Assembly (NCBI GenBank): GCA_026387155.1
Contig: JAPLMF010000027.1
Location: forward strand, 18,317 to 60,452
Reading direction: 5' to 3'
Source: Candidatus Omnitrophota bacterium
Lineage (GTDB): Bacteria; Omnitrophota; Gorgyraeia; 2-01-FULL-45-10
DNA length: 42,136 nt
Shown one piece after another: positions 21,446 through 42,136 of this stretch. A program made the translations under genes and the position numbers. Under the pieces are notes generated by a model, which made no database searches, was not told where the DNA came from, and saw nothing but the letters and a program-made list of their open reading frames with translations. Numbering within the stretch: position 1 is the stretch's first letter; every line of letters starts with the position of its first letter.

Positions 21446-22301
21446 AAAATCCTTTCAGCCCTGTTAATACTATGCCTTTCATGAAATACTTCTGGAACAC
21501 AAGGAACGCTATGAGCATAGGCGTCGTCGCCACGACGGCACCTGCCATGACCATCGCGAATCTCGTGCCAAACTGGCCGTTGAGCACGGAGAGGGCGAGC
21601 GGCAGCGTTCGCATCGAGCTTGAGTTTATCACTATGAGGGGCCATATGAAATTGTTCCACTGCTGCAGGAACGTAAATATCGCAAGCGTCGCCAGGATGG
21701 GCTTTATCATGGGCAGTATCATGAGCCTGTAGATCATGAACTCGCCGCACCCGTCTATCTTGGCCGCATCGATAAGGTCGTCCGGTATCGACATTATGAA
21801 TTGTCTGCACAGGAAGACGCCGAACACTCCGGCCATGACAGGTATTATCAGTGAATTATAAGAATTGAGCCATCCGAATTTTCTCATCAGGATAAAGCCG
21901 GATATAATATTGACCTGCCACGGTATCATAAGAGAGCCCAGGAGCACGAAGAATATCTTATCCCTGCCCCAGAACCTGTGCTTGGCGAATGCGTAGCCCG
22001 CCAGCGAACAGAAGAAGAGGTTCGCGACCGTCACGACGGACGCGACCCAGATCGAATTCAGGATGTAGCGGAACATAGGGACTAGACCAAATAGGTCCTT
22101 ATACGGCAGGAGCGTCGGATGCTTCACTAGAAAAGAAGGCGGATACGATTGTATCTCTTCAACGGGCTTTATGCTGGTGACGAACATCCAGACATACGGA
22201 ATAGCTATGGAGATCGCGCCGAGGAAGAGGAGAGCGTATATCACGCTCTTTATCGCGACATTTTGGGACCGTTTGCTCTTCGGAATTTCCATATCGCTCA
22301 T
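21438..22301 (-). CDS. ABC sugar transporter permease (MalG/UgpE-like)
   Basis: Multiple TM helices and EAA-loop-like DAAKIDGCGEFMIYRLMILPMIKP. Confidence 0.93.
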   Translation of the reverse strand: MSDMEIPKSKRSQNVAIKSVIYALLFLGAISIAIPYVWMFVTSIKPVEEIQSYPPSFLVKHPTLLPYKDLFGLVPMFRYILNSIWVASVVTVANLFFCSLAGYAFAKHRFWGRDKIFFVLLGSLMIPWQVNIISGFILMRKFGWLNSYNSLIIPVMAGVFGVFLCRQFIMSIPDDLIDAAKIDGCGEFMIYRLMILPMIKPILATLAIFTFLQQWNNFIWPLIVINSSSMRTLPLALSVLNGQFGTRFAMVMAGAVVATTPMLIAFLVFQKYFMKGIVLTGLKGFYE

Positions 22302-22305
22302 TATA

Positions 22306-23949: not shown

Positions 23950-23975
23950 CTGGCATCCTTTTCAAATATCAAGAT

Positions 23976-23984
23976 ATTATATCA
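23976..23984 (-). promoter_or_regulatory. Extended -10 promoter element for the phosphohexomutase gene
   Basis: Minus strand TGATATAAT (TGn-TATAAT), ~30 nt upstream of ATG at 23949. Confidence 0.5.
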
Positions 23985-24070
23985 GAATTGACTGAAAAAA
24001 ACTATATACTGTGAAGCCTGAAAAGGAGTAAGATGATAGTGATTAATTTCCCTATAGGAGAATTTTATCG

Positions 24071-25375
24071 GTGGATATTAAAAGCGTATTATCAAAAAAT
24101 CTTGGCATAACGAAGCTTACGCCGGCCTCTTTAAAAGAAGCCTTAGCGCATCATTATAATCACCTGCCTGATGACGAAAAGAGGCGTATAAATCGTGAAA
24201 TCGCCCATTATGTAATAAAAGCCATGGGGCTTCCGCAAGATAAGAAAAGATACGAAGCTACCGCAAAAACAGGATCCTTATCGGACACTCGCGTACTGGG
24301 AATAAATTACTTCGGTCCTCTTGATGTTACTATCCAGTGGAAGACCGAAACGGACGGCACTCTCACGCTGGCAGGATACCGTACGGATTCGGGAGGAGAT
24401 CAGATCAACGTATCGAAGGTATTCAGCGCTTTTCACGAAAATATCGCGCTGGTGGCGTGGACAGGAAAAGCGGGCGGAGAGATCACCGATGTTTGGGAAA
24501 GAAATTTCCTGAATTCAAGAATAATTCCAACACTGATCCGCGACACCGAAGAAGATGAACGGGCAGCGATTTATAATATAATTGACGGCGATACGCTTCC
24601 CGGAATGTTCGGGTGGGCAAATGAACTGTCAGGTGAAACAGTAGAGAATATCAACCAGGAAGCCTTGACGATGCTTAACCGGATGCTTAAAGGAGGATCG
24701 GATAATATCTGGATGACCCTTTCGGCGGGAGGACCTATAAGATATAACAGGCGCCTTGCCTATTACGCTTCACTTATAAAAGAGGTAAAGAAGAAATATC
24801 GGGACGATGTGAAATTACTGATCGATTTCAAGTTCATGTCCGGCCCTGCGGAGACCATGTCGGTTCTGGATATTCATAGAGAAACGCCTCAGGATATAAT
24901 TAAACCTAATCTGGAAGAATTTATACAGATCCTGACCTTGAGCGGTTTGGCAGAAAAAGGCGCTCTTGATAAAAATGCAATTACCGAAAAAGTCGTTAAA
25001 GCATACGCAATAAAATTGAGGAACAAATATAATCTTCTGGGAGTGCTTGTTTCAATGGATAAATCCGGATTGGTTCTCGTTATGAAAGATAGGATCATTA
25101 AGGAAAAAGGTATCAGTATAATACAGGCATGTCCTACAGGCGCGGGAGATTCACTTAAAGCGGGCCTTCTTTACGCGCTTTCCAACGGAAAGTCATTTGA
25201 GGAAGCTGTACATACCGGAAATCTTTTTGGGGCTTCAACGGCTTCTATGGAAGGCTCTCAAACTGTCACTCCGGATAGTCTTGCCAAGATAGAGACTTTA
25301 GCGCGCATACAAAATGTAGTGCCGGAAATAGAAATGCCGATGTCTCTCGGCACCGGCATTTCTTCAGAACAATAA
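24071..25375 (+). CDS. PfkB-family hexose kinase (FruK/LacC-like) with extra N-terminal region; GTG start
   Basis: C-terminal PTGAGDSLKAGLLYAL; IIPTLIRDTEEDERAAIYNI. The only confidently called plus-strand gene. AGGAG ~10 nt upstream of GTG. Confidence 0.8.
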   Translation: MDIKSVLSKNLGITKLTPASLKEALAHHYNHLPDDEKRRINREIAHYVIKAMGLPQDKKRYEATAKTGSLSDTRVLGINYFGPLDVTIQWKTETDGTLTLAGYRTDSGGDQINVSKVFSAFHENIALVAWTGKAGGEITDVWERNFLNSRIIPTLIRDTEEDERAAIYNIIDGDTLPGMFGWANELSGETVENINQEALTMLNRMLKGGSDNIWMTLSAGGPIRYNRRLAYYASLIKEVKKKYRDDVKLLIDFKFMSGPAETMSVLDIHRETPQDIIKPNLEEFIQILTLSGLAEKGALDKNAITEKVVKAYAIKLRNKYNLLGVLVSMDKSGLVLVMKDRIIKEKGISIIQACPTGAGDSLKAGLLYALSNGKSFEEAVHTGNLFGASTASMEGSQTVTPDSLAKIETLARIQNVVPEIEMPMSLGTGISSEQ

Positions 25376-25380
25376 ATTAC

Positions 25381-26835
25381 TTACACCGTACCTCTACGGT
25401 CTTCGAGGCTATCGCGGATATCCTCGGATTTTTGTCTTGTTAGCGGCACACGCATAACGAAAATAATAGCGACGACGAGACCCACGACCGGAAGAGATGC
25501 AAGGCTTGCGCGGATCCAGAATATAGTCTGAGGCGCCTGCACATTAACTTTCCAGGTAAAACCAGACCATGTCAAAATAAGGCCGGAAAAATAATACCCG
25601 AGTGAATTCCCCAGTTTAAGGATATAGGAACCGCAGGCCGTAAAAGAACCTTCCCTTCTTCTACCGGTATTCAGTTCATCGTAGTCCATAATGTCGGCGC
25701 CGATGGCGCTATGCAGCATCCAGAGACTAGCCGCGGCCATTCCCATCAAACCTGACGAGATCGTCTGCAGCCATTTGATCGCCGGCGTATATAAAAACCA
25801 GGAGCCGCCGTAACCGCATATGCCTATGACGCAGGCCACCACTGCCGCCTCGCGGTTGCCGATACGATCCGCCAAGAACTTATGCAATGGTACGCCTATA
25901 AGGCCGCCCACCATAAAAGCCACACCCATCCAAAACTGCCAATTATCTCCCGAAATTCTGTTGCCGCCGGCTACATAAAAGACCGTGGCGTAGTAACCAA
26001 GCGAGCCCACCATACTCGTGCCCATGGTAAAAGCACCGCCCATGACCATCATCTGACGGAATGGCTTACACTTAAGCGTCTCACCCAGGGAACTAAGAAT
26101 AGAGACCTTCTCTTTAACCTTTACCACTACTGTCTCATAGTAGCGCTCTTTAACTCTGAAGAAAATAATTATGGAAAAAATAGCCATTACTACGCCCAAT
26201 ATTGCTGTGTACATCCGCATTCCCAGGAGGGTATTCTTTTGCGCTGTTCCCGGAATTAGAAACCAGGCAAGGTTAGTGAACCGCAAAGCGTAAAAATTAC
26301 CCAATTCCGAAACCTTCTGGGTCATACTGCGATAGGACATTATGGAGGTCCGCTCATGATAATCAGGCGACATTTCCGCGCCAAGACTATAGTAAGGTAC
26401 GGTAAAGGCACTGACTATAGGATAATAAAGCATGGTGGAACCGATCATGTACCAAAAGACCGCGGAGACGCCGAGAAATTTTGCATCCGCCCAGGACGGC
26501 GACACCAAAAACAGTATCGGTAGGCAGAGTCCGCTAAAAATACCGGCTATCAAAATAAAAGGACGGCGACGACCCCATTTAGTACGTAAATTATCGGACA
26601 GCCACCCCACAATAGGATCAATAAGCGCATCCCATACCCGGATCAACGTAAGCGCCAAACCTACCAGCCACGGTTCAACACCCAAATACATGTTGAAGAC
26701 CGCAAAAGCAACAGCCGGGTACAACCAGAGGCCCCACATATCGACTGCCGTGCCAAGACTATAAGCCATCTTGGTGCCCCTCGGAACACGATCTCGCGGC
26801 GCTTTCCTTCTTTCAACAAATTTAGGTTCTTCCAT
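25381..26835 (-). CDS. GPH family sugar:cation symporter (MFS)
   Basis: IRVWDALIDPIVGWLSDNLRTKWGRRRPFILIAG, 12-TM pattern, DYDELNTGRRREG. Confidence 0.92.
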   Translation of the reverse strand: MEEPKFVERRKAPRDRVPRGTKMAYSLGTAVDMWGLWLYPAVAFAVFNMYLGVEPWLVGLALTLIRVWDALIDPIVGWLSDNLRTKWGRRRPFILIAGIFSGLCLPILFLVSPSWADAKFLGVSAVFWYMIGSTMLYYPIVSAFTVPYYSLGAEMSPDYHERTSIMSYRSMTQKVSELGNFYALRFTNLAWFLIPGTAQKNTLLGMRMYTAILGVVMAIFSIIIFFRVKERYYETVVVKVKEKVSILSSLGETLKCKPFRQMMVMGGAFTMGTSMVGSLGYYATVFYVAGGNRISGDNWQFWMGVAFMVGGLIGVPLHKFLADRIGNREAAVVACVIGICGYGGSWFLYTPAIKWLQTISSGLMGMAAASLWMLHSAIGADIMDYDELNTGRRREGSFTACGSYILKLGNSLGYYFSGLILTWSGFTWKVNVQAPQTIFWIRASLASLPVVGLVVAIIFVMRVPLTRQKSEDIRDSLEDRRGTV

Positions 26836-26871
26836 TACGTTTTCTCCTATTTCCTTTTTTGAACATTGCTC

Positions 26872-27813
26872 TTAGCGATTATAACATGCATCGATAAGAC
26901 GCTTTAAGCTTGTAGTAGCCACGCATTGAACCGTATCAGCACCGCCGTAATAAATTTTAATTTCGCCGTTATCTTCTGCCACGGCGCCACAGGTAAAGAC
27001 CACGCTGGGAGTCTGTCCCACAAGTTCGTATTGCTCCTCGGGGATCAGGATCGCGTCTGCAGACATAGCCTTGACTTTTGCCGGATTCTTCAGGTCCAAA
27101 AGACAAACACCTAATTGATAAACAAAATGCGATCTGCACTGAGTACGCACTCCGTGAAAAATAGTCAACCATCCCTCGGGTGTTTTAATAGGAACGGCTC
27201 CCGGCCCAATCTTTGTCCAGGCCCAGCGGATCCCCTCCCAGTTCCTAAATACACATTCACTCTTTCCCCAAAAGATCAGATCGGGAGAATAAGACACCCA
27301 AATATCCCCTGTATCGGATCCGGTATTGGGACGATCAAGGCGCGTATACAATCCGTTGATCTTCTCCGGGAAAAGCACTCCGTTGCGGTTATCTGTTTCA
27401 GAAATAAACCCCGCCCATTGAAATTTCTTAAAGTCCTTTGTCTTCACCAGGCTCAGCCGGCAGGTGTGGCCGCTATGCGCGGCGTGGACCATATAATATA
27501 TATCTCCGAGCTTTGTAACGCGCGGATCATAATACATACCGTCTGAATACTTCTTAAACTCCGGATCATCGTGGGGCATATCCAACGGCTTTGACCGAGG
27601 GTTAAAATGATAACCGTCCGCGCTTTCCGCGATCCAAAAACGGTCAACCAGAGCGGAATTCTCCACCCGGCAAATCATAATATAAGTTTTATTGTATTTC
27701 ACGATGCCGGAATTAAAAACATTTTTAATATCAGCCTCGGCGGGAAAATCCTTACCTGTCAAGATAGGATTTCCCTCATACCGCTTGCATATAGGATACT
27801 TCTTTGTTTTCAT
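26872..27813 (-). CDS. GH130 beta-mannoside phosphorylase family protein
   Basis: RYEGNPILTGKDFP, VFNSGIVKYNKTYIMICRVEN, YYDPRVTKLGDIYYM, GPGAVPIKTPEGWLTIFHGV, YYGGADTVQCVATTSL. Confidence 0.9.
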   Translation of the reverse strand: MKTKKYPICKRYEGNPILTGKDFPAEADIKNVFNSGIVKYNKTYIMICRVENSALVDRFWIAESADGYHFNPRSKPLDMPHDDPEFKKYSDGMYYDPRVTKLGDIYYMVHAAHSGHTCRLSLVKTKDFKKFQWAGFISETDNRNGVLFPEKINGLYTRLDRPNTGSDTGDIWVSYSPDLIFWGKSECVFRNWEGIRWAWTKIGPGAVPIKTPEGWLTIFHGVRTQCRSHFVYQLGVCLLDLKNPAKVKAMSADAILIPEEQYELVGQTPSVVFTCGAVAEDNGEIKIYYGGADTVQCVATTSLKRLIDACYNR

Positions 27814-27846
27814 ATCTAATTTCCTCTCTTTTTAGGACTCTTTTTA

Positions 27847-28626
27847 TTATGCAATATCTAACCACTCTGTATCAGCTCTATTCCATTCTAAAATTGGATG
27901 CCCTCTACCTTCAAAGTATGCCCGGACTTTTTCTTGATCGTATTTTAACAGGTCTTCAAGAATAGGCACTAGGATGGAAAGAACATTATCGGATATTACG
28001 CTTCTTCGACAGATATGTCCCATATAAGGTGACGGAGAAACGGTTATTGGATAACCATTGTAGGACATGATATGTAACATCACATGAACATCGCTTGAAC
28101 CATCTCCTACATATATTATGGCATCCCTGGGAACATTCTCTTTTTCCTTTAACATATCGAGGGTGGCTACTTTCGCATGCCCGGCATTAGTTCTTTCAAC
28201 ATCCTGGACGATGCCATTTTTATAAACAAAAGTTGTGCCGTAGACGTTGTCGGCAGGTAAGATGTGTTCTACTGCTTTCTCAACACACTCTTTAGGCGCC
28301 GCGGATACTATATACGTGCTGAAACGGCAATTATCAATTCCTTCAGCCAGGATCTTCATTAGTTCGGGGACCCCTTTCTTGAGCTGAATCTCTTTTCCTA
28401 CTTCATAAAGAAGGTCTTTAGATACTTTCCCGATATAATCAGGGTCCCGAACTATCAAATGCGCGAGCTCTCCACCGAGCTGTACGATGTTTCTGCGTTT
28501 TATATCTTCTATCTTCCGGTCGAACGCTTGAGCGGATATTCCCAGCTTTGCGCTTAGTATATTTCCTACATCTCCTACAGAGAGTGTCTTGTCAAAATCA
28601 GAAGCAAAGATAATTTTTTTCTTCAT
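27847..28626 (-). CDS. HAD-superfamily phosphatase (class IB-like)
   Basis: FASDFDKTLSVGDVG (DxDxT), VSAAPKECVEKA, YVGDGSSDVHVM. Confidence 0.85.
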   Translation of the reverse strand: MKKKIIFASDFDKTLSVGDVGNILSAKLGISAQAFDRKIEDIKRRNIVQLGGELAHLIVRDPDYIGKVSKDLLYEVGKEIQLKKGVPELMKILAEGIDNCRFSTYIVSAAPKECVEKAVEHILPADNVYGTTFVYKNGIVQDVERTNAGHAKVATLDMLKEKENVPRDAIIYVGDGSSDVHVMLHIMSYNGYPITVSPSPYMGHICRRSVISDNVLSILVPILEDLLKYDQEKVRAYFEGRGHPILEWNRADTEWLDIA

Positions 28627-28668
28627 TTTTAACGCACGCCTTCTTCCTTAAAATGTAAATGTTTTGGA

Positions 28669-28697
28669 AGTATAACACTTTCAGAACTGCTTGTCAA
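28669..28697 (-). promoter_or_regulatory. Sigma70-type promoter upstream of the HAD phosphatase gene
   Basis: Minus strand TTGACA - 17 nt - TATACT (plus: AGTATA 28669-28674, TGTCAA 28692-28697). Confidence 0.75.
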
Positions 28698-28716
28698 TAA
28701 AGGGGTTCGAAGCTTA

Positions 28717-29628
28717 CTAATACTCAACCTTCGTCTTTACAAACTTTATGTTGATTATCGTTATTATAAATACCACCGCGAATACGATATAACCCAATGC
28801 GGAGGCGTACCCCATCTGGAACTTCCTGAATCCCATGTCGTACAGATATGCTACAACGGTCAATGCTGAATCGAGCACGCCGCCTATGCCGAACTCGCTC
28901 TCCGTCATTATGTATATGCGCTCGAATACCTGGAACGACGCTATGAAGCTCATTATGACGACGAATACCATCGTAGGTTTTAAGAGCGGCAGTGTTATGT
29001 GCCTGAACTTCTCCCACCGGCTGGCGCCGTCAATATCCGCCGCCTCGTAAACGGTATTGGGTATCGTCTGGAGTCCCGCCAGGAAGAGTATCATGTTGTA
29101 GCCAATACCTGCCCATATCGACATTATCATGATGGCGGGCAGCGTCCATACCGGACTCATCAGCCAGTCTATGGGCTTAAAGCCCGCTAGCATGAGACAA
29201 TGGTTTATAAGGCCGTACTTCTCGCCTGCGAACATCCACTTCCATATCACGGATAGCGCTATTACCGAGGTGACGGTCGGGATGAAGTATATTGTGCAGA
29301 AGAAGTTCTTAAACTTTATCTTCTGGTTGACCGCCATAGCCAGAAGAAGCGAGAGTATGACCCCCGGAGGTATTACACCGACCGTATAGAAGATCGTATT
29401 ACGTATCGACTTCCAGAATCTTGGGTCATTGAATAATATAGTCCTATAATTATCGAGGCCGATCCATTTCGGCGAGTGTATGCCGTTATATTCGGTGAAC
29501 GACCAGTAGAAAGAAGCGACGAGCGGCCCCAGGACGAACACCGCAAAGAGGAGGACCACCGGCGCAATAAAAATGAACGACCACTTCTGTTCGTTCATTT
29601 TTGCTAAGAAGCTGCCTCTTTTTATCAT
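28717..29628 (-). CDS. ABC sugar transporter permease (MalF/UgpA-like)
   Basis: FIAPVVLLFAVFVLGPLVASFYWSFTEYNG; EAADIDGASRWEKFRHITLPLLKPTMVFV (EAA motif). Confidence 0.93.
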   Translation of the reverse strand: MIKRGSFLAKMNEQKWSFIFIAPVVLLFAVFVLGPLVASFYWSFTEYNGIHSPKWIGLDNYRTILFNDPRFWKSIRNTIFYTVGVIPPGVILSLLLAMAVNQKIKFKNFFCTIYFIPTVTSVIALSVIWKWMFAGEKYGLINHCLMLAGFKPIDWLMSPVWTLPAIMIMSIWAGIGYNMILFLAGLQTIPNTVYEAADIDGASRWEKFRHITLPLLKPTMVFVVIMSFIASFQVFERIYIMTESEFGIGGVLDSALTVVAYLYDMGFRKFQMGYASALGYIVFAVVFIITIINIKFVKTKVEY

Positions 29629-29641
29629 ATCTTCCTATACG

Positions 29642-30436
29642 CTAAAACGTTCCGTACTTCGCCATGTACCTTCTTATCATCTCGAACGACTTTGGTACGT
29701 ATTCCAGCTCTTCCTCTTTGCCTTCGTACTCTACGTTAAAGAAGCCGCGATAGTTGGCTTTCTTAAGTATCGCGAATATCTTGTCATAGTCAAACTCGAG
29801 TTCCCTGCAATCGGGAGAGAGTTTGTGGATCTTGGCGTGCATGTGGGTCGCATAAGGGATCGACTTCTCAAGCGCCGCGTACGGATCGGGATCGTGATAG
29901 TTGCCGGAGTCAAGATTAAGCTTCACCCACGGTGAACCCACGTCTTTTAAGAGTTTCAGCGTCTCTACCGATGTCGGGAGATATCCGCCGCTGTTGTGAG
30001 ATTCGACGGCGAGAGTGACACCTTTCTTCGCGGCGTATACCGCGCACTGGCTTATGCTCTTTACGACCTTAGGCCAAAGTTCGGCGTGCCTCTCTTTAGG
30101 CGCCCATCCGGCGAATATGCGGAGGTTTGGGGAGCCTAAAAGATATGCGGTGTCCGTCCAGCTGTTTATCTTGGCTACCTCGGCCTTCTCATCAACATCT
30201 TTATCTTTGCCGAAACTGTTGCCCGGTGAAACGGCCGATATCGTTATGCAGAGGTCCGTCGCAAGCTTCTTTATCTTCAAGAGGTAATCCGGCTCCTGGC
30301 TCTTTAAATGGATATCGATTATATCCACCCCGCCTATTTTGAGATCGTTGGCGCACACATAAAGAAGCTTCTCCATATCCATCTTGCCGGATGCGAAAGT
30401 CCTGTTATACGACCAGGTGCAGAGTCCTAATTTCAT
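29642..30436 (-). CDS. Sugar phosphate isomerase/epimerase (xylose isomerase-like TIM barrel)
   Basis: MKLGLCTWSYNR, GVDIIDIHLKSQEPDYL, LAVESHNSGGYLPTS, VKLNLDSGNYHDPDP, FFNVEYEG. Start taken at the second Met. Confidence 0.85.
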   Translation of the reverse strand: MKLGLCTWSYNRTFASGKMDMEKLLYVCANDLKIGGVDIIDIHLKSQEPDYLLKIKKLATDLCITISAVSPGNSFGKDKDVDEKAEVAKINSWTDTAYLLGSPNLRIFAGWAPKERHAELWPKVVKSISQCAVYAAKKGVTLAVESHNSGGYLPTSVETLKLLKDVGSPWVKLNLDSGNYHDPDPYAALEKSIPYATHMHAKIHKLSPDCRELEFDYDKIFAILKKANYRGFFNVEYEGKEEELEYVPKSFEMIRRYMAKYGTF

Positions 30437-31473
30437 TTTACCTTCACCCATTTTCCTTTAGCACTGGATTCGTATGCGGCGTTTATGACAGCCATAGTGG
30501 CCCTGCCCTCTTCGCCTGACACGAGCGGCTTATTCTTCGTTATGACACAATCGATGAAACAGTGGACCGCGTTCTCCCAGCCGGAAGCCGTGGACCCGAG
30601 TTCAGGATATATTTCCTCGAGTATACAGTTCGGGTCGTCGCCCTTCCCGGTCTTGGCTATGACGACCCTGACGGGCTTTTCGGTCCCGATGGACGTCGTC
30701 ATCTTACCCTTTGACCCATAGACCGCCGTCGTAACCTCGTAAGGCCTAGTCGTCCACGAGCATTCTATCTCGCCCTTCGTGCCGTCTTCGAATTTGAACA
30801 ACACAGTCGCGTTATCGTCGACCTTTACATCTTTTTCGATCGTCCTGATGGTAGCAAATACTTCCACTATCTTCTTCCCGGCGAACCATCTCACGAGGTC
30901 AGTAATGTGCACGCCTATGTCTACCATTGCGCCGCCGCCGGACTTTGACTTATCATAGAACCAGTGGGCCTTGCCTTCCGACCAGTACTCAGGACCCGCG
31001 TGGCCGATCCTGCCACGTATGTTGTGTATCTTGCCCAATACTCCTGAATCGAGTATCTTCTTCGCGGCCTGATGGACAGGATCAAACCTCTGGGTCTGCT
31101 CTACCATGAGGTATACACCGTTCTTCGCCGCGGCCTTCGCCATTTTGTCGGCGGCCTTGGCAAATATCGCTATCGGCTTCTCCACAAGGACATGCTTCTT
31201 GTGTTTGCAGGCTGCCACCGCCATCTCTTCATGAAGGTAGTTCGGAGTATCGACGAATACGACGTCGATGTCTTTGCGTTTCACGACCTTCTTCCAGTTA
31301 GTCTCTATCTCGGCGCCGCTTAGCTGGAACTTATCTTTAAGAGCCCTTGCTTTGGCCGCATCTATATCACAGAGAACTTTTACTTCCGCCTTATCCTTGT
31401 AATTAATCAGGTTCGGCAAGCTCGCGCGCTCCGCGATCTTTCCACAACCGATAACTGCCACTCTAACTGCCAT
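30433..31473 (-). CDS. Gfo/Idh/MocA family oxidoreductase
   Basis: VAVIGCGKIAERASLPNL, VEKPIAIFAKAADKM, GGAMVDIGVHITDLVRWFAG. Confidence 0.93.
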   Translation of the reverse strand: MAVRVAVIGCGKIAERASLPNLINYKDKAEVKVLCDIDAAKARALKDKFQLSGAEIETNWKKVVKRKDIDVVFVDTPNYLHEEMAVAACKHKKHVLVEKPIAIFAKAADKMAKAAAKNGVYLMVEQTQRFDPVHQAAKKILDSGVLGKIHNIRGRIGHAGPEYWSEGKAHWFYDKSKSGGGAMVDIGVHITDLVRWFAGKKIVEVFATIRTIEKDVKVDDNATVLFKFEDGTKGEIECSWTTRPYEVTTAVYGSKGKMTTSIGTEKPVRVVIAKTGKGDDPNCILEEIYPELGSTASGWENAVHCFIDCVITKNKPLVSGEEGRATMAVINAAYESSAKGKWVKVK

Positions 31474-32715: not shown

Positions 32716-35700
32716 CTAGGCTGCTGAGAGTGATGCGATGAGCATACCGTTTAAAGTTGCAAACTCCTGCGGATCCCTTACTTCTATAGGGGGCAGGACG
32801 AATATAAACTTTCTGGCAAAATCCCTGCCGGAATCGGTCACGTCCGGTATTCTGGAAGGCGGAGCGCCGGTCAAAAGCTCATATATGCGAGAGAGCTTTT
32901 CCATCCTCTGGCTATAATCATTTATATATAAAGCCCTTAAACCGGCCAGTATACCTTCAAGCTGCCTAAATGTGCCCAGCCTTCCGCCCTCTGCCTTAAA
33001 TACAAGGAACTTGGCGTCCTTAGGCATCTTGGACATAAAGGCCTCATCGTCAAGATATCTCTCGTCATCGAGAGCAATATCCACCAAAACATCGCGTCCG
33101 GTAAGCTCCATCTCCCGGAGCTTTATCTTCTCTATCATCTTCTCGGGATGCCTCATTTCTTCTTCGGTTACAACAACTATCTTTTCACTTGAATCCGGAT
33201 ATTCATCGTTCCACCGTTTGACGACACCAGAGAAGACTGTCCTTTGCGTTTTGGATTGCCCGACATACTCGTGCGGAACAAGGGCCTCCGGTATTATGTG
33301 ATATATGACCTTACTGTCTTTGACAGGAGGAACAAGATCCTTATTTATCCGTCCTATGGCTTCTATGTCACGCTTAATCCTGTCCGAAAGCGTATCAGTC
33401 AAAGCGCTCTTTTTGATCAGCCATTCCAGCCATATCTTTCTCTCCCTGGCGCTGCCTTCCGACGTATTATACTTTACGCGGTCATATAAAGCATGGATCC
33501 TGTTTACAACTTCTCCGCCGGCCTTATATTGTCCCAATATATAACCAAGGCCTGCCGCGGCATTCCGGTACATAACGCCGGGTTCGCTATCTTCTTCCAA
33601 TATTTTAAGGAGCTCCGACGCGTATCCCGGATTACCGGATTTGCCGAGAATATTTGCCGCGACCCGCCGTACCGCAAGCGGCGCTTTAATATCCGCCAGC
33701 GCCGATCTAAGGTATTCTGTGTCGCCGCCCAGATCTTTGAGCATTACGCGCGATTTCGCTATTGTCGTCGCGGAATCAAGGCGCATCAGTTTATCTTGTA
33801 GTTTGCCAAGCGGCGCGGCATCGCTCATTAATATCTCTTTTCTCAAATCTGCTATCCTGTATGCCCTCTCCTTCATTATCTCAGAAAGCGGCCTCGCGTA
33901 ACCTTCCTTCTTCCACAGATATAGCGCCCAGTATGTATTGACCCACGCCACATCTATCACGTCGCCGCCCGTAACGTGGTCTTTAAGCCATTTCCTTTTT
34001 GTGGGCTCCAACATTGCTTTCAACCCGCCTTCAATAAATCTGTGCAGTATCTCTTCTTTGGATGTAGCTATACCGCCGTAATTGATAAGCCACGAAGGCT
34101 GCGATATTATCCCCTTCGCGAGCATTAGGCGCTCTATACGCGCCACTTCTTCCGGCCGGGACGTCTTCTTGCCGATAGGCGCGTTTGCCGCGGAAGCGAA
34201 TATCCTGACCTTTAAATTTGCCACATCTTCATCGGTCTCTATCTGATAGGCCTTCGCGGCAGGAATGGCTATCAAGGCATCTTTAAATAATATGCGCTTG
34301 GAGGCTTCCCTGGCGGCCGCCTCATCCTTAGACGACATCTCCGCGGTGGTCGCGATAACTTCGCTTGAGCCCAATATTTCGTAGTTTGCAGGATTAAAAA
34401 CAAACCTCTCGCCGCGTTTGGCGGCGGCGGCCTTATCTCCCGCAAGCCTGCCAATCTCTTCTAAGGGAATACCTCCCGAATTATAGATACTGCCGAAGTC
34501 CAGATCAGAGACGCCTACAACCCTAAAATTGTATTTATTGTAAACTTCGGGGTGTTCTAAAAATAGCTTTATGATATTTCCGCCGACTTCACCTAAACCC
34601 TGCAATATTATCGTCCGGGGTTTATCGGTAGGTATATTGAATTGTTTGATGACACTTTCATTGTCGAGAAGCGCGCAGATGCTTTCGAGCACCGACAGTG
34701 ATGTCACGCGCCATGCATCATGTGACAGGTATCCTTTTTCGGCGCTGCCGCTTGTCGTCAGCGGTATGAGCTCTGTATTCAGGTCCTTTTCCGCCTGTAT
34801 GCCTATTCCATCTATGAGCTCCATTATATCGCCTACATCCATATAGTTAGGCCGCATGTCAGGCCCTTCGATGCGGCTTACGCCGAGCGTCCCCAGATCT
34901 ATGAATGCTTTGACATACAGCTCTACGGCGCGCCTGACATTGGCGATATTCGCGGGACTCGCCTCTTTCTGGGCGCATTCGATCCTCACTCCGCCCTTTG
35001 CCACTACAAGGCCGCGGTCAAAGAGGTCTTTGTCGCCATAAACTGCCGTAGCCGCAAAATAGTTATTCCCGTCAACATAAAGGAACGACTTGCCGCCTTC
35101 AAAGAATACTTCGGCGAGAGGATTCTTAAATGACATATCCCTGGCCAGGTCCGTCGCTTCTTTAAGCGCGTTCAACGCACTGAAATCGCCGTTTTCAGAT
35201 GCTGTTATTGTGTAATAGAGAGGAAGATCTTTGTCGCGGAGCCCTAAAAGTTTGCCCAGATCGCCGCTCAGCATGATGCTAAGCCCGGCTTCACCGCGCT
35301 TATGGTAGTAGCCGTCTTCATTAGTCTTTATGACAAGGGCCCTTAGCGCCGCGAGTTTTTCTTCGGGCGTACCTTCGAGCGCGTCTCGCACTATCGGCAG
35401 CGCCGCTATCTTATTAAGAAGGATGTCGAGCTTTGCGGTCTCTCGGGCCTCGATATTTCTTATGAGGGAGCTTACGAGCTTAAGACGCTCTTTATAAGCA
35501 TTGTTCGGGCCGTGATCTTTACCGGTGAGGTGGGCAAGTTCGTCATCTTCCAGAATTGTCTTACAGAGACGTTCTGAATTCCTCTGAAAAATACGCTTTA
35601 ATAACTTCTCTCCTATATAAATGGCCCCGTCACGATAACCAGCGTGAGCGATATTGGAATGGGCTATATCGTTATTCCACCCTATGGCAGCCTCTCCTAG

Positions 35701-38700
35701 AACTATACGAAATTTAATCGGGCTGCCGCGTAGTCTATGAAGGTTGAGCCAATTTTTAACATTGGCCGATTCTTCTTCGCTAAAAAATCTTGTAATTTCA
35801 GCTGGCGGACCGCGGCACTCATTAGGATCAGTGGCCCCGGGCTTATATCCGTTGACATAACGGACCTGGTACGCCTTGAGCACTCCGTCTTCAATGGTAA
35901 CTTCAAACATCTTGCCGCTCGCGATAAGATCGCTTATTAAAGTATTGGAATCCGGAGCTTTGGGGCCTTTTAAATCCTTGTTCGGCGCGATCGCGGCTGC
36001 GGCGGTGACTTCTTTGCGCTCTACGGCCGCATTCCACTGCCTGAGATATTCAGCCGAGGTCAGACGCGCTTCAAGGATACCGCTCAGCTTGACGGCGGTG
36101 GCTTGATACTTAGCGACCTCTTCAGGGGTTTTTTCCAGGACAGCCATCAGCGCGGTAAAATACGACTCAGGTTTATTGTCTTTAGGGATGATGGTATTGC
36201 CTTCGCCGGGAATGTCCAGATTTATAGGTACGCCCTGCGACTGCAATATGCCTTCGGGCAGCGGCGGAGCGAGCTGCAAGCCTCCGCACACACCTACATC
36301 CGCTTCGGAATAACCGGCCGCTTCCGTCTTTGGATCGGAGTCCTGTATCTGGACATCCGTCGCGGCGAGGATAGCGCGCTGATCCTCAATATCTATATTG
36401 TGAATAATGGTAAAGCTGCCTTTATATACATCGGGCTCTGCCTGTTTTTTCCTGGCAATATCCCTCTCTATGTCGGAAAAACGCTTGATACTATTCACCA
36501 TATGAGGATTGACAGGCACATTAGCTCCTATCACGACCTGTATCCCTGCCCTTACCATCTTCTCTATATTCTCAGGGGAGAACGCTCTCGTCGGAGAGGC
36601 TTTTTCAGGTACCACCCTGCCGGTAAAGGAGACGACGTACTGGTCCTCTCTTAAGCCAAGCTTTTTTTTGGATTCCCGTTTTGTAGCGAGGACCTCTCCG
36701 GGGGTAGGCTCTTCCACATCCGCGTCGGGGAAGAGGCTAAGCATATTCTCGCGAAATATATGGGCCGTTGAAGCCCTCACGTCGCCATTCGTTACCGATA
36801 CCATCATATTGGTAAGATGATCCCATTCGTCGTGATTGTCATATCCGAACCCACGCGCAGGGCTTAGGATATCATCAACATGTTGGGCGCTTACACCCGC
36901 GTACCAATCGGCCGTACGGGCACCGGCCGAGGTCAGATCGACCACATTCCCATAGGTATGATAAAAATATTTCCAATATTTCTCATCGATACCGATATAC
37001 CTCAGAATATCATCGCCGGTCCTCCTGTCCCACCAGACCCTGTTTGGATACGTATGGGTACTGTACCCGACCATCGCCCTACCCAGTATGGGATCTTCCT
37101 TATAATAGATATTTCTGAAGAGGGGCGCCGACCCGAGCTGGCCGTCGTTAAAATGGATGGCGGGCGCTCGGTAATCATCTGCCGCCACGGCGGCTTTCCT
37201 TTTCTCAATAATCTTTATTAATTCAAGCGAAGCCCTCGAAAAGAAAGCGGAGAACTCCGCGTCCGATACGAGGTTGCCTTCATCCGGGTTCCTGTAGTGG
37301 TATAATCTTTCGGTATAGTAAGGCACTTCCGTCTCGGCCTGGCCTTTTTTATAGCCCTTTATAAGGTAGCTCTCAATACCGAACTTATTAACGGCCATAT
37401 AACAAACGGCTACGGCTGTAGAATTTCCTATAGGGACATCGAACCTCGCCACCTCTTTTATTTCTTCGGCTCCGACCCCTAATAACGCGGAGTAATTAGT
37501 TTCTTCATCCTGTCCGGTCTTCTTGTTCTTCGTCCTCGCGTAATATGGCTCGCAGGTCTTCAGGGGCTGCCCCCCGCATTTCAAAAGATCGGCGAATCCT
37601 ATGCTATGGGACTGCTCTACCCTGCCCAGGCCGCCTCCGGCATTCCAAACCTCGGAAGACACGACCCATACCGAACGGTCTCTAAGCGAACGGGCTTGTC
37701 TGGACATCCAATCCTCAGAGATCTCTTCTTTAAGCATTAACAGAATAGAGTCGACTACCGGCTTGCTCCTTACATCCGCGCATTCCGGGCTCGTAAGTAC
37801 GGTAACGAGCGACAGTTTCTCTTTCTTGCTGAGCAATCTTACCGCCCTGAGTATGGGGTATCTGGCTTCTACCGGATGGCGCTTGTTGGCAGCGGCAATC
37901 TGATCACATGCTGAGAGTAACTCCGAAACACTTCTGTCGCTCTCCCAGCCCACTTTAAGGGCCGCGCTCAGCTCTTTCAGCAGATACTTCCAGTTATCTC
38001 CAACCATCGCCTTAGGGACGTCCACCTGTTCCGATTTAGCCTGCTGATACCTTTTCCAGGCGCGTATCTTTTCGCCAAACTTATTCTTACCATGATTCTC
38101 AAGATCCTGGAGCGTGAGGCCCCTTATGTAATTCTCGGGCATATCCTTCCAGAAAATAGCGGCGGCTATCTGTATAGCCAGTAAATGAGTTGAAGTATCG
38201 TGCTCTGATGAATATTCGCCGCCTCTGCCGAATGCCGCGTGAAAAAATTCGTGAAAAAGCGCTTCCAGCCTGTGTTCATACAACGGACTTCTCGGATCAA
38301 AAAATTCGGCGGCGAGCCCTATCGATCTTTTGGTGCCGAAACCGAGATAGTATTTTTCCAAAGATTCGTAGACTGACTTGATAGTACCTAATTTCCAGCC
38401 CTCTGATGCATTTCTAAATAGAGCTATGGTTTCGAGCAGTTTATCTTTTACCGCATTGGGGGCGCGCGCCTTTATTATCTCTTCCAGCTCATCCAGGGTC
38501 CTTGAAAAAGACTGCGACTCATTCCACGGTGTAATGCTTATATTCTCCAGATCCACATCATTAAACCTGTGGCCTATCAACGGCTCGTCCGAAACGCCTG
38601 CCTGTGGATGTTCTGATAAGAAGATCTTTACCGCGAAACGATCCGGCGTATCATAGCCGCCTCCCAAACGCGATACAGCCGCGGAGTTTTCAAGCAGACA

Positions 38701-39084
38701 GACCCTTATCTGACCAGAAACTCCTTTTATAGGTATCGTTATTATGCCGTAGTCATCTAAGGTAATTTTGATATTCGGATCTATGTGCTCCATATAAGAA
38801 GGGTAATTATGTAAAGCCTTGACTGCATGGTCAACACCTTGCGCCTCTATAAGGCATTTTTCGCCGATGCGGCAGGCTATCTCCGTCAGAATAGCATAGT
38901 CCTTTATTTTATTATTGCGGGTAGTGTCTCCGGCGGGAGGGGTCGGATCGGAAACAATTTGCGGCGCAAGGGTATCTTTTGGAAAAACTTTAATATCGGC
39001 AAAGGCCGCGGAGGACGTGACCTGGGTCAGTATTACGAACCACGTCAGCGAGTGTAGAAGCAGATTATTTTGTTTCTTATCCAT
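32716..39084 (-). CDS. Giant exported multidomain protein: HExxH region, GT5 starch/glycogen-synthase-like region, Glu/Leu/Phe/Val-dehydrogenase-like region, repeat and C-terminal regions
   Basis: Start at ATG 39084 (MDKKQNNLLLHSLTWFVILTQVTSSAAFADIKVFPKDTLAPQ), not the TTG at 39102. HEFFHAAFGRGGEYSSEHD; VVSSEVWNAGGGLGRVEQ...AIHFNDGQ...GYSTHTYPN (GT5-like); GLVVAKGGVRIE...ILQGLGEVGGNIIKLFLE...ASAANAPIG...QPSWLINYGGIATSKEE (dehydrogenase-like). Confidence 0.85.
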   Translation of the reverse strand: MDKKQNNLLLHSLTWFVILTQVTSSAAFADIKVFPKDTLAPQIVSDPTPPAGDTTRNNKIKDYAILTEIACRIGEKCLIEAQGVDHAVKALHNYPSYMEHIDPNIKITLDDYGIITIPIKGVSGQIRVCLLENSAAVSRLGGGYDTPDRFAVKIFLSEHPQAGVSDEPLIGHRFNDVDLENISITPWNESQSFSRTLDELEEIIKARAPNAVKDKLLETIALFRNASEGWKLGTIKSVYESLEKYYLGFGTKRSIGLAAEFFDPRSPLYEHRLEALFHEFFHAAFGRGGEYSSEHDTSTHLLAIQIAAAIFWKDMPENYIRGLTLQDLENHGKNKFGEKIRAWKRYQQAKSEQVDVPKAMVGDNWKYLLKELSAALKVGWESDRSVSELLSACDQIAAANKRHPVEARYPILRAVRLLSKKEKLSLVTVLTSPECADVRSKPVVDSILLMLKEEISEDWMSRQARSLRDRSVWVVSSEVWNAGGGLGRVEQSHSIGFADLLKCGGQPLKTCEPYYARTKNKKTGQDEETNYSALLGVGAEEIKEVARFDVPIGNSTAVAVCYMAVNKFGIESYLIKGYKKGQAETEVPYYTERLYHYRNPDEGNLVSDAEFSAFFSRASLELIKIIEKRKAAVAADDYRAPAIHFNDGQLGSAPLFRNIYYKEDPILGRAMVGYSTHTYPNRVWWDRRTGDDILRYIGIDEKYWKYFYHTYGNVVDLTSAGARTADWYAGVSAQHVDDILSPARGFGYDNHDEWDHLTNMMVSVTNGDVRASTAHIFRENMLSLFPDADVEEPTPGEVLATKRESKKKLGLREDQYVVSFTGRVVPEKASPTRAFSPENIEKMVRAGIQVVIGANVPVNPHMVNSIKRFSDIERDIARKKQAEPDVYKGSFTIIHNIDIEDQRAILAATDVQIQDSDPKTEAAGYSEADVGVCGGLQLAPPLPEGILQSQGVPINLDIPGEGNTIIPKDNKPESYFTALMAVLEKTPEEVAKYQATAVKLSGILEARLTSAEYLRQWNAAVERKEVTAAAAIAPNKDLKGPKAPDSNTLISDLIASGKMFEVTIEDGVLKAYQVRYVNGYKPGATDPNECRGPPAEITRFFSEEESANVKNWLNLHRLRGSPIKFRIVLGEAAIGWNNDIAHSNIAHAGYRDGAIYIGEKLLKRIFQRNSERLCKTILEDDELAHLTGKDHGPNNAYKERLKLVSSLIRNIEARETAKLDILLNKIAALPIVRDALEGTPEEKLAALRALVIKTNEDGYYHKRGEAGLSIMLSGDLGKLLGLRDKDLPLYYTITASENGDFSALNALKEATDLARDMSFKNPLAEVFFEGGKSFLYVDGNNYFAATAVYGDKDLFDRGLVVAKGGVRIECAQKEASPANIANVRRAVELYVKAFIDLGTLGVSRIEGPDMRPNYMDVGDIMELIDGIGIQAEKDLNTELIPLTTSGSAEKGYLSHDAWRVTSLSVLESICALLDNESVIKQFNIPTDKPRTIILQGLGEVGGNIIKLFLEHPEVYNKYNFRVVGVSDLDFGSIYNSGGIPLEEIGRLAGDKAAAAKRGERFVFNPANYEILGSSEVIATTAEMSSKDEAAAREASKRILFKDALIAIPAAKAYQIETDEDVANLKVRIFASAANAPIGKKTSRPEEVARIERLMLAKGIISQPSWLINYGGIATSKEEILHRFIEGGLKAMLEPTKRKWLKDHVTGGDVIDVAWVNTYWALYLWKKEGYARPLSEIMKERAYRIADLRKEILMSDAAPLGKLQDKLMRLDSATTIAKSRVMLKDLGGDTEYLRSALADIKAPLAVRRVAANILGKSGNPGYASELLKILEEDSEPGVMYRNAAAGLGYILGQYKAGGEVVNRIHALYDRVKYNTSEGSARERKIWLEWLIKKSALTDTLSDRIKRDIEAIGRINKDLVPPVKDSKVIYHIIPEALVPHEYVGQSKTQRTVFSGVVKRWNDEYPDSSEKIVVVTEEEMRHPEKMIEKIKLREMELTGRDVLVDIALDDERYLDDEAFMSKMPKDAKFLVFKAEGGRLGTFRQLEGILAGLRALYINDYSQRMEKLSRIYELLTGAPPSRIPDVTDSGRDFARKFIFVLPPIEVRDPQEFATLNGMLIASLSAA

Positions 39085-39102
39085 CGTCCTCTTTATGGTC
39101 AA

Positions 39103-39164: not shown

Positions 39165-40130
39165 TTACAGCGACTTCAGCGCCGCCTGCGCGGCCCTGTA
39201 CGCTGCGCTTGCTGCCGCGAGATCCACCGGCACTATTCTCGGCAATATCCTGAAGAAACCTCTCTTAAGCAGCTCAATCACGTCGTCAATAGTAAAAGGC
39301 TTATTATCCGGTGCAAGAGCTACTCTATCGAGGGCCCAGAACACGAACCTGGCGCCATCTCTCGTATATCCGCCCGTAGCCCCATCTTTATACAGGACAT
39401 TTGCTACCGCTATCCTGAGCGCAAGGTCTTGTAGCCCGGGGACGGGCATGTAGCGCCCCCTACCGTCGCGCATCTGCTCGACATTAATGACACTTCCGTA
39501 CTGTGTGGCCGCGGCTGCGATCTTTTGGTCAGGAGTCGTCGTAACGACGGCCCGTACTTTACCCTGGTTATCTGTCATCGCCTTTTGTATGGCTTGCAGA
39601 AGAGCGCTTCCGGTACCTCGTATATTAATGATCCTATTACCGGCCTCCTGATTTATAAGACTCTGAGCAGCCTGTACTGTGCCGCGCAGCGCGTCTTCAA
39701 CAGTCGTATCGAATGCGTTTATGATCACTCCATCATCCACGTCGAGGCTCGTAATGAGACTTTTCATCTCTTTGGATGCCAGTGTATTGGCAAGATATTT
39801 GATCTGTCCGGTCTCTTTATTCTCGACAGCAGCTATCTCGGAAGCGGTCATCTCCAGAGATTCCGCGTCTCTTCGATTTGGAACGTCCTGAGTAAATACT
39901 TCGGCTGGCCCTTCCAACCCAAAGAGCTCATAAGCGCCGCCGGATGCCGCGAGAATAACATTCTCGCCTTCGTTAACTACATACCGCTTTCCCTGACTGT
40001 TCACTACTTCTATCTTGCCCTTTGTAACAAAGAGCGGTATATCTTCACCCTCATTCAAAGAAGAAGCTGATATGGAGCCACCCTGATCTATGGTATATCT
40101 GCCTGTAATATACCTATCTGTCTGGCCCAC
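39165..40130 (-). CDS. C-terminal cupin and tail region of the mannose-6-phosphate-isomerase-like protein, probably out of frame with the 40130-42136 ORF
   Basis: EFEVVGQTDRYITGRYTIDQGGSISASSLNEGEDIPLFVTKGKIEVVNSQGKRYVVNEGENVILAA cupin-like. GTG 'start' overlaps the TAG of the upstream ORF; the open frame continues upstream as AKKPEKAEFEVV. Confidence 0.6.
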   Translation of the reverse strand: MGQTDRYITGRYTIDQGGSISASSLNEGEDIPLFVTKGKIEVVNSQGKRYVVNEGENVILAASGGAYELFGLEGPAEVFTQDVPNRRDAESLEMTASEIAAVENKETGQIKYLANTLASKEMKSLITSLDVDDGVIINAFDTTVEDALRGTVQAAQSLINQEAGNRIINIRGTGSALLQAIQKAMTDNQGKVRAVVTTTPDQKIAAAATQYGSVINVEQMRDGRGRYMPVPGLQDLALRIAVANVLYKDGATGGYTRDGARFVFWALDRVALAPDNKPFTIDDVIELLKRGFFRILPRIVPVDLAAASAAYRAAQAALKSL

Positions 40131-42136
40131 TACTTCAAATTCCGCCTTCTCCGGCTTCTTAGCCCGAACGGCTCGAACTTCAAGCTCGCCGGCTCGACTC
40201 TGTTAAGTCCTCCCTGTCTCTGGGCTTCCTCCAGCGCAGCACGCGTCTTCGCAAGGGCGACCTCGTTCATCGTAAGAATGTCCTTACCTTCTCTGCCGGG
40301 ATTTTGGCTTCTCAATTCTTCCGCCGTCATTTTAAGCGAAGCACCGGGTTTGGTAATAAGAAACTTTAGGCGATCAAAGAAGGAAACCGTACCATTCTTA
40401 TCTTCTTCGGGTGTAACAGCCTTAACCTCATACACCTTTACCTGGCCGTAAGCATGGGGTACATTGGCAGGCACTATCATCGGAACGCCCGGCTCAAGCT
40501 CAATCTCGTTCATCACCTCATGCATCCTGCCCTGCATACAAGCCTCGATGATCTCTTCAGCCGTCATATTTTGTTTAAGCCCGAGATAGGCCTTACCCTT
40601 CTCGAGCGGCACTATCATCTCGCTGAATGTGTGGAGCTGCACCGATAGCGGAACTGCGGATGCGAGCACTTTCGCGGTTATCGGGGAGGCCCCGAGCTTC
40701 GAAGCTACTATGCGTTCGGCAACCTGATCATCAGCCGCTATCCCAAACTTAGCCGCAAGGGCAAGCCGCTCGGCCTCGGTCTTTGCCCCCATCTGCGCCA
40801 ATATGAAACTTTGGACGACAGACTGTCCCCACATATATCCCTTAGAACCCAGGTTAAATTGCGGCTCCATAGGTATGGGCGCAGCGGATGCAGTAAGTCC
40901 TACGACCTGCGCCGCGCGGGCGACCTGATCCGGAGTTATTATGACAACCGGCCTCGTCGAACTTCCGGTTTCAAGCGGCCTGTTTAAATATCTATCCATA
41001 TTATTATATCCATAAAGATCGCGCATAGAGATGGTTCCTTCTTTTGGGGACGTATGTGCCCTAAAACTTATCGTCAGTTTGTCTGTTCTATTGGCAACAA
41101 AGGCTTCCTGGCCATTAACGGTCACGGCAATATAAGGGACCGCTGCTGTCAATGTCCTAGGGGCAACTCCGGGGATAGTAAAAGAAAAGTCTTTGAATAC
41201 CAGGCCGCCTAAATTGACTATTTCATCAACATAGTAAGGATAGGCAACGGTCCACGATCCTCTCTCAAGACGATAGGCTGTGCCGCCCTTGTCATCTTTA
41301 TTCCACTGTATGCCTCTGCCGCTTACGACATACTTGATATCCATACTATCATTCTGTAAGTGTCCCGGCCCCGTCGATGTATGCTGTATCGACCCGGGCA
41401 GATAGTCATGCAGAAATACCGTTGTATGATATCCACCGATGTGCAACATCAGATACATGACCATCTTTGGCGACTGCGAATCAAACTTCTCTTTATCGTA
41501 TATGGCTTCGGCCGATATGTTCGAACCGAGCTTCGCCACGCCTTCGGCCCCGCGCCAGTACATACCGTAAGACGCACCTTCGGCGTCTGCTATATCTATG
41601 CCGGAATCTATCACTGAATGCGTATCGATATAGCTTAAGCCCCTGTCTTTATCCTCGGCCCTAAGCATGTCCACAGGATTTACGGTAAGAAGTAATTTTT
41701 CAGCTCCCGGAACCTTGTCTTCTATGAGTGAAATTATCGCAAGCGCCTGACCCGCCATGATCTGTAAGCCCCTGGAGACTTCAGGATCCGCGACATCGAG
41801 AGCGCGCTGCGCTACAAGTGCGAAGTACTTTTTAAGGTCCTCTTTGTTCGTAATCATCCGATAGAACTTTAAGCGGTCATTTGCATCTATCTTGAATGCA
41901 CTGAGAAGCTCGGATTCGGGTTGATATGCGGGCCTATTGTCGAATAGCTCGGCAAGTGCCACCTGCGCGTCTATCGTGGTTGCATCAGCCTTGTACGAGC
42001 CCGCTTGGCTAAGATCGGGGGATACCCCATATTTTCCGGGCGACGAGCTGATGGTCGCGACAGCCAAGGATGGAAGAGCGGGCGTTAACGGTGCGGCCTG
42101 AACAACAGGCTTAAACTCAAAGACATCCGCATCCTC
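40130..42136 (-). CDS. Type I mannose-6-phosphate-isomerase-like protein, 5' partial (open to the window edge) and probably 3' frameshifted
   Basis: SVQLHTFSEMIVPLEKGKAYLGLKQNMTAEEII...ELEPGVPMIVPANVPHAYGQVKVYEVKAVTPEE; frame stays open to 42136 (EDADVFEFKPVVQAAPLTPALPSLAVATISS), so the track start at 42067 (TTG) is an artefact. Confidence 0.65.
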   Translation of the reverse strand, partial: EDADVFEFKPVVQAAPLTPALPSLAVATISSSPGKYGVSPDLSQAGSYKADATTIDAQVALAELFDNRPAYQPESELLSAFKIDANDRLKFYRMITNKEDLKKYFALVAQRALDVADPEVSRGLQIMAGQALAIISLIEDKVPGAEKLLLTVNPVDMLRAEDKDRGLSYIDTHSVIDSGIDIADAEGASYGMYWRGAEGVAKLGSNISAEAIYDKEKFDSQSPKMVMYLMLHIGGYHTTVFLHDYLPGSIQHTSTGPGHLQNDSMDIKYVVSGRGIQWNKDDKGGTAYRLERGSWTVAYPYYVDEIVNLGGLVFKDFSFTIPGVAPRTLTAAVPYIAVTVNGQEAFVANRTDKLTISFRAHTSPKEGTISMRDLYGYNNMDRYLNRPLETGSSTRPVVIITPDQVARAAQVVGLTASAAPIPMEPQFNLGSKGYMWGQSVVQSFILAQMGAKTEAERLALAAKFGIAADDQVAERIVASKLGASPITAKVLASAVPLSVQLHTFSEMIVPLEKGKAYLGLKQNMTAEEIIEACMQGRMHEVMNEIELEPGVPMIVPANVPHAYGQVKVYEVKAVTPEEDKNGTVSFFDRLKFLITKPGASLKMTAEELRSQNPGREGKDILTMNEVALAKTRAALEEAQRQGGLNRVEPASLKFEPFGLRSRRRRNLK

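What the first reader, a model, noticed from the sequence alone, without database searches (positions are those of the whole stretch)
32716..39084. Giant exported fusion of a GT5 glycogen-synthase-like and a glutamate-dehydrogenase-like region
Seen: one uninterrupted ~2120-aa frame with an N-terminal signal-peptide-like segment, HEFFH metalloprotease-like motif (~38240-38253), GT5-like region (~35998-37677), Glu/Leu/Phe/Val-dehydrogenase-like region with a Rossmann-type QGLGEVGG (~33883-35025), and HEAT-like and C-terminal regions. Established: GT5 enzymes and GDHs are normally separate cytosolic proteins needing nucleotide cofactors. An exported fusion is hard to reconcile with ordinary metabolism. 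It may be a novel multifunctional or non-catalytic scaffold protein.
Basis: partly seen in the sequence, partly recalled or inferred. Interest (0 to 1): 0.78.

Follow-up and report, generated by a model that had tools for sequence, protein, structure and literature searches.

The report
Exported giant protein carrying cytosolic enzymes
This gene, from an uncultured relative of a tiny bacterium that preys on other microbes, encodes a giant protein apparently sent out of the cell and carrying parts of two enzymes that normally work inside cells; it belongs to a larger, apparently undescribed set of exported proteins with a shared tail that carry such cargo, perhaps for use on or in prey.

Summary
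One open frame (ATG 39084 to 32716; 2122 aa) has a ribosome site, a signal peptide and no other membrane segment. Its GT5 and Glu/Leu/Phe/Val-dehydrogenase regions exceed Pfam cut-offs, and the GT region folds confidently (pLDDT 90) as a glycogen/starch synthase (Z 28). 'Non-catalytic scaffold' is disfavoured: in 23 GT homologues the H161, R300 and K305 equivalents are invariant and an active-site Glu always sits at one of two positions, although GlgA Lys15 is lost in all. In ten dehydrogenase modules K125 and D165 are invariant. The genome also has ordinary GlgA and GDH.

The genome belongs to the class of Candidatus Velamenicoccus archaeovorus (Omnitrophota), whose 39.7-kaa giant carries the same GT module. 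The protein is one of a modular set: signal peptide, interchangeable cytosolic-type cargo (phosphofructokinase, PPDK, mannose-6-phosphate isomerase, phosphorylase, DnaJ, sigma-70 regions) and a tail domain ending 0-2 residues from the stop in 20 of 20 proteins checked. Giant Omnitrophota proteins are known; I found no description of this tail-tagged class. Action on or in prey is inferred, not shown.

The parts
32716..39084 (-). the whole gene, 2122 aa from ATG 39084 (2128 from the upstream TTG at 39102)
   Evidence: open frame, AGAGGA ribosome-site-like sequence just before the ATG, P(open by chance) about 5e-50
38998..39084 (-). Sec-type signal peptide, residues 7-35 (numbered from the TTG), likely cleavage after SAAFA
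   Evidence: basic n-region, hydrophobic core, A-x-A end; same pattern in homologues; no other TM-like segment
38623..38997 (-). head module, residues 36-160, with TLAP motif; recurs at the N-terminus of other big exported ORFs
   Evidence: nt profile
38032..38622 (-). zincin-like module, residues 161-357, intact HEFFH at 38239-38253
   Evidence: homologues in G002 and twice in G034; HExxH intact here and in one G034 copy only
37717..38031 (-). helical N-terminal extension of the GT module, residues 358-462
   Evidence: model; outside the range aligned to GT5 structures
35998..37716 (-). GT5/GT35-like GT-B catalytic region, residues 463-1035; H683, R829, K834, E927, E933, D653
35425..35997 (-). 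GT-partner module (M3), residues 1036-1226; DDELAH where a zincin would have HExxH; no known fold matched
   Evidence: lies directly before the GT module in at least five other proteins
33808..35235 (-). GDH (ELFV) region, residues 1290-1765; K113/K125/D165 equivalents K1326, K1338, D1415; GLGEVGG at 34579-34599
33433..33795 (-). HEAT-like helical stretch, residues 1770-1890
   Evidence: below Pfam cut-off (16.9 vs 27.7 bits): weak
32719..33405 (-). tail domain (type A), residues 1900-2128, at the extreme C-terminus
39165..40130 (-). neighbouring 321-aa ORF: ManA-type C-terminal cupin plus a type-B tail; the downstream part of the next giant, separated from it by a frame break
40130..42136 (-). 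end of the neighbouring 2406-aa ORF (PGM/PMM domains I-IV further upstream, ManA-like here), continues beyond the window

Best explanation
The gene encodes a Sec-exported, soluble, multi-module protein of the Omnitrophota (class of Candidatus Velamenicoccus archaeovorus). A signal peptide and head module are followed by enzyme-like cargo (zincin-like, GT5/GT35-like glycosyltransferase with its partner module M3, glutamate-dehydrogenase-like) and a tail domain that is the common C-terminus of a class of such proteins. Shown by sequence and model: architecture, modularity, export-type N-terminus, tail position, retained catalytic residues. Inferred: the tail is a sorting, anchoring or delivery tag; the GT module works on a glucan with a nucleotide-sugar or sugar-phosphate donor; the dehydrogenase oxidises an amino acid; and the protein works at or in a prey or host cell, where glycogen, glutamate and nucleotide cofactors are available, which would explain why cytosolic-type enzymes carry an export signal. 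The confidence is for an exported, catalytically competent modular protein; action on or in partner cells alone I put near 0.35.
For: Same GT module in many giant frames, including the Velamenicoccus ORF. GT model pLDDT 90, Z 28.4 to starch synthase IV 6gne (rmsd 3.0, 473 aligned) and 26.8 to E. coli GS 3cop. H, R, K and E equivalents invariant in 23 of 23, and E/G at 927/930 swapped in exact register 13:10, while only 6% of columns are invariant. GDH K125 and D165 equivalents invariant in 10 of 10; the GDH profile matches PDB GDHs at 5e-109. Tail domain at 0-2 residues from the stop in 20 of 20; signal peptide in 24 of 26 tail proteins with an assessable 5' end (my count). Other tail proteins carry cytosolic-type domains, with usual catalytic motifs readable in several. 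Stand-alone signal-less homologues of about 850 aa in methane-cycling archaea support a real enzyme family. Peptides of the Velamenicoccus giant rise 3-fold in attached cells (PMC10066038) and its intron RNA is seen inside dead archaeal cells (PMC13153191).
Against: GlgA Lys15 is lost in all 23 GT modules. The K89 equivalent of GDH is missing at its usual place here, with a displaced AKGGVR later. No NCBIfam equivalog cut-off is reached. HExxH is not conserved in all zincin-like homologues. There is no secretion-route, expression or localisation evidence for this gene, and nothing shows delivery into another cell. The tail has no convincing relative in the PDB by sequence profile.
Confidence: 0.55

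Rival explanations
1. Non-catalytic scaffold or coat: captured enzyme folds reused as sturdy or glycan-binding building blocks of a surface layer, like the coat role proposed for the Velamenicoccus giant.
For: Lys15 lost in all GT modules, K89 position lost in this GDH, zincin-like homologues partly without HExxH, M3 with DDELAH instead of HExxH, weak match to curated enzyme models.
Against: Putative catalytic residues are among the most conserved columns across copies 29-49% identical to this one, with an exactly coupled Glu swap; GDH Lys/Asp invariant; other tail proteins hold readable PFK, PPDK, PMI and DnaJ motifs.
Confidence: 0.25
2. Exported enzyme acting outside the cell or in the periplasm on leaked or prey-lysis products (glycogen, glutamate), without entry into a prey cytosol. 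This is a sub-case of the best explanation that differs in where the protein acts.
For: Signal peptide, no TM segments; the gene lies beside a mannan-utilisation locus with GH113, GH130 and sugar transport.
Against: Several sibling cargos (DnaJ, sigma-70 regions, HTH, PFK) make little sense without ATP, DnaK, RNA polymerase or DNA.
Confidence: 0.35
3. The hydrophobic N-terminus is not a signal peptide but a membrane anchor with the bulk in the cytosol, so this is an intracellular multi-enzyme.
For: The hydrophobic core is modest here (KD 2.07 over 12 residues); SignalP not run.
Against: A basic n-region before the core predicts C-terminus out; A-x-A sites recur; 24 of 26 assessable tail proteins have such N-termini with different sequences.
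Confidence: 0.07
4. Assembly chimera or decaying gene.
For: The neighbouring giant is split into three frames that are one frame in relatives; single MAG contig; the full module order is seen only here.
Against: This frame is unbroken, uniform in codon-position GC, and its modules and module pairs recur in other genomes.
Confidence: 0.04

Closest known systems
39,678-aa giant ORF of Candidatus Velamenicoccus archaeovorus LiM (NZ_CP019384; Kizina 2022, Seymour 2023 PMC10066038)
   Same: carries the same GT5/GT35-like module (35% identity), in the same stretch as a UDPGP-like match; same bacterial class
   Different: about 19 times longer; published as having 42 transmembrane helices, whereas this one has none besides the signal peptide
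Bacterial glycogen synthase GlgA and starch synthases (GT5)
   Same: GT-B fold, Z 26.8 to E. coli GS and 28.4 to SSIV; H161, R300, K305, D137 equivalents kept, a Glu in the E377 loop kept
   Different: 14-18% identity, Lys15 lost, extra ~105-residue helical extension, exported multi-domain context
Alpha-glucan phosphorylases (GT35)
   Same: the TEAAG...E stretch resembles EASGTSxMK; profile and fold matches (4l22 E 0.0013; Z 22-24)
   Different: the SGMK lysine is not present in the aligned stretch (SEAD), and the protein region is shorter
Glutamate dehydrogenases (ELFV family, e.g. 2tmg)
   Same: K113, K125, D165 equivalents, GxGxxG and N-x-GG motifs
   Different: K89 missing at its position here, inserted strand with AKGGVR; giant-borne copies 16-29% identical to this one

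Membership tests
GT5 glycogen/starch synthase | GT-B fold matching GT5 structures over the catalytic domain | tested here: met
   Z 28.4, 3.0 A, 473 aligned
GT5 glycogen/starch synthase | Pfam PF08323 above curated cut-off | tested here: met
   44 vs 22.7 bits; 9 of 10 members of A1 also match
GT5 glycogen/starch synthase | KTGGL motif with Lys15 | tested here: not met
   A, P, L, V, E or M in 23 of 23
GT5 glycogen/starch synthase | H161, R300, K305 and an active-site Glu | tested here: met
GlgA (curated subfamily model) | TIGR02095 curated cut-off | tested here: not met
   24.9 vs 328 bits
ELFV / glutamate dehydrogenase | Pfam PF00208 above cut-off | tested here: met
   40 vs 23.4 bits
ELFV / glutamate dehydrogenase | catalytic Lys125, Asp165 and Rossmann GxGxxG/A | tested here: met
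ELFV / glutamate dehydrogenase | substrate Lys89 in KGGLR before the K113/K125 segment | tested here: not met
   absent at that position here; a displaced AKGGVR occurs later, its place in the fold is unknown
GDH equivalog | NF040817 curated cut-off | tested here: not met
   23.8 vs 750 bits
Omnitrophota giant proteins | ORF longer than 20 kb (criterion of Seymour 2023) | tested here: not met
   6.4 kb
Omnitrophota giant proteins | shared modules with recognised giants | tested here: met
Sec-exported proteins | signal peptide | tested here: inconclusive
   pattern present and recurring, no SignalP, no experiment
Tail-domain (type A) exported class described here | tail at the very C-terminus plus N-terminal signal peptide | tested here: met

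The most novel reading that the evidence does not exclude
Bacteria of this class deploy a secretion-tagged protein family whose common tail serves to deliver interchangeable, catalytically live cytosolic enzymes and regulators (glycogen-synthase-like, GDH, PFK, PPDK, isomerase, DnaJ, sigma-70 regions) into prey or host cells and rewire their metabolism.
Probability: 0.25. Interest if true: 0.92.

Novelty: new variant of a known kind. Interest (0 to 1): 0.62.

Why it matters
Giant Omnitrophota proteins are among the largest known, but published work says most have few annotated domains and their function is hard to assess (PMC10066038). The module map gives many of them readable content: copies of central-carbon and regulatory proteins. 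The shared tail gives a simple marker to collect the class and a handle for testing export. If the enzymes work in prey, predation by these bacteria would involve metabolic takeover rather than only adhesion and wall digestion.

Tried and rejected
The search for related loci with the full protein found nothing in genome contigs; the alignment query worked. A viral-contig scan with the tail alignment gave no relatives. PDB sequence search with the full protein gave none; the tail profile gave no convincing match. The M3 model (pLDDT 82) matched nothing by Foldseek (best E 1.5) and reached Z 2.1 at most among rechecked chains: no statement about a new fold is made. Tail types A and B compared by hhalign: probability 11.5%, not accepted as homologous although they align end to end. 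Pseudogene and chimera ideas were considered and disfavoured. Neighbouring genes of the archaeal stand-alone homologues gave no functional hint.

Full report
Observation. The minus-strand frame 39102-32716 is open for 2128 codons. Codon-position GC is uniform and such a frame has a chance probability near 5e-50. Pfam finds Glyco_transf_5 at 478-756 and ELFV_dehydrog at 1482-1686, both above the curated cut-offs, and a sub-threshold HEAT_2. HEFFH is at 38239-38253. The N-terminus MDKKQNNLLLHSLTWFVILTQVTSSAAFA-D is signal-peptide-like, and there is no other membrane segment. Residue numbers below count from the TTG at 39102.

Where it is. The window is G000:C68:18317-60452 of a 1.62-Mb, 91% complete genome. 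Relatives found by the GT module are mostly labelled Candidatus Omnitrophota; a same-class relative, G080, has a contig of 1,974,201 bases, the length of the Velamenicoccus archaeovorus chromosome NZ_CP019384.1. The genome has its own canonical GlgA-type gene (479-aa frame, 261 bits) and GDH (447-aa frame, 307 bits), so the fused copies are extra.

Modularity. Searching relatives and comparing large frames shows shuffled modules. The GT module (360-1040) occurs in large frames of about ten relatives, including the Velamenicoccus giant. Module M3 (1036-1226) follows GT here but precedes it in G062 (the same record as L095), G033, L085, L087 and L089. GDH modules occur in G004, G019, G025 and G079, and by Pfam in frames of 1229 to 10,855 aa. 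The head (signal peptide, TLAP motif, about 110 further residues) recurs at N-termini. The complete order of this protein was not seen elsewhere, but the G001 and G002 homologues are cut by contig ends.

GT module. AlphaFold2 with 23 rows gives pLDDT 90.3, pTM 0.91. Best structural matches are starch synthase IV (Z 28.4) and E. coli GS (26.8), then GT35 phosphorylases (22-24). In 23 sequences H683 (H161), R829 (R300), K834 (K305) and E933 are invariant, and D653 (D137) is D in 22 and E in one. Lys15 is never present. At 927/930 the pair is E/G in 13 and G/E in 10, with no other state, and the two states are mixed over the tree. With 6% of columns invariant overall this reads as selection on an active site. 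The numbering of GlgA residues rests on alignment to canonical GlgA frames and on my knowledge of the E. coli enzyme. The row labelled GlgA_own was the wrong frame (a DNA-polymerase-like ORF) and was ignored. Four archaeal loci and one deltaproteobacterial locus carry the module; in L082-L084 and L088 it sits in 831-855-aa frames without an evident signal peptide. In the midpoint-rooted tree the three archaeal rows group with an Omnitrophota giant.

GDH module. Ten giant-borne copies give a profile that matches PDB GDHs at 5e-109. K125 and D165 equivalents are invariant; K113 is kept in nine of ten; K89 is missing here and in G040 at its usual place, with an AKGG-V/L-R after the GGK strand in this protein and in G020. 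Whether that lysine reaches the active site is open.

Tail and class. The last ~225 residues form a domain found in 44 of 292 genomes of the class, with about 84 matches and up to nine per genome; of 26 positives among 285 genomes sampled across the phylum only two lie outside the class. In 20 fetched frames it ends 0-2 residues before the stop. Of 31 tail proteins examined, 26 have an assessable 5' end and 24 of these begin with a signal-peptide-like segment (my count). Cargo by Pfam: PPDK_N plus PEP-utilizers plus NUDIX; PFK; PMI_typeI; Phosphorylase; GT5 plus alpha-amylase plus Sigma70_r4; Sigma70_r2; DnaJ; CofD; ARMT1 plus radical SAM; some tail proteins give no match. Motifs such as HPD in DnaJ, TSHAA in PPDK, PKTIDND in PFK, SIQAHP and NHKPE in PMI and EASGTSGMK in the phosphorylase can be read directly. 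PGM/PMM domains lie in giant frames up to 45,379 aa in many relatives. The immediate upstream giant here has PGM/PMM I-IV and ManA-like regions and a different (type-B) tail.

Mechanism. Shown: export-type N-terminus, module order, tail position, predicted fold of the GT module, conservation of catalytic residues. Inferred: export is by Sec; the tail sorts, anchors or delivers; the enzymes are active; they act on or in prey. Indirect support comes from Velamenicoccus: giant-ORF peptides rise threefold in attached cells (PMC10066038) and its intron RNA is found in dead Methanothrix cells (PMC13153191). No direct evidence exists for this protein.

Verdict. A real, unusual protein and a new variant of the known Omnitrophota giant proteins. 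I found no publication describing the tail-tagged class in the open-access library, but the two key papers (Kizina 2022; West-Roberts 2023 preprint) were not held, so novelty is provisional.

Noticed in passing
window 40130-40200 and G000:C68:65618-65666: The upstream giant (PGM/PMM, ManA-like) is split into three overlapping frames (653, 2406, 321+ aa), whereas G002 has the same parts in one frame and G003 joins the last two; sequencing error or decay cannot be told apart.
   Followed up: partly
L082, L083, L084, L099: Homologues of the GT module in Methanophagales, Methanosarcinales and Methanomicrobia archaea, mostly stand-alone and signal-less, grouping with an Omnitrophota giant in the tree: possible gene transfer between this bacterial lineage and archaea.
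   Followed up: partly
window 19808-30451: Mannan-utilisation locus (GH113 with F5/8 C domain, GH130, PGM/PMM, MFS and ABC sugar transport); the PGM in the adjacent giant resembles the local free-standing PGM.
   Followed up: partly
G050:C1 near 1182809: PGM/PMM domain inside a 45,379-aa open frame in a single-contig genome.
   Followed up: no
G000:C68:69521-72514: A further 998+ aa frame with a PEP-utilizers_C domain reaches the contig edge at its 5' end and has a similar LPPxxPI...AA terminus.
   Followed up: no
G168 (several contigs): Nine type-A tail matches in one genome, a good place to catalogue cargo.
   Followed up: no
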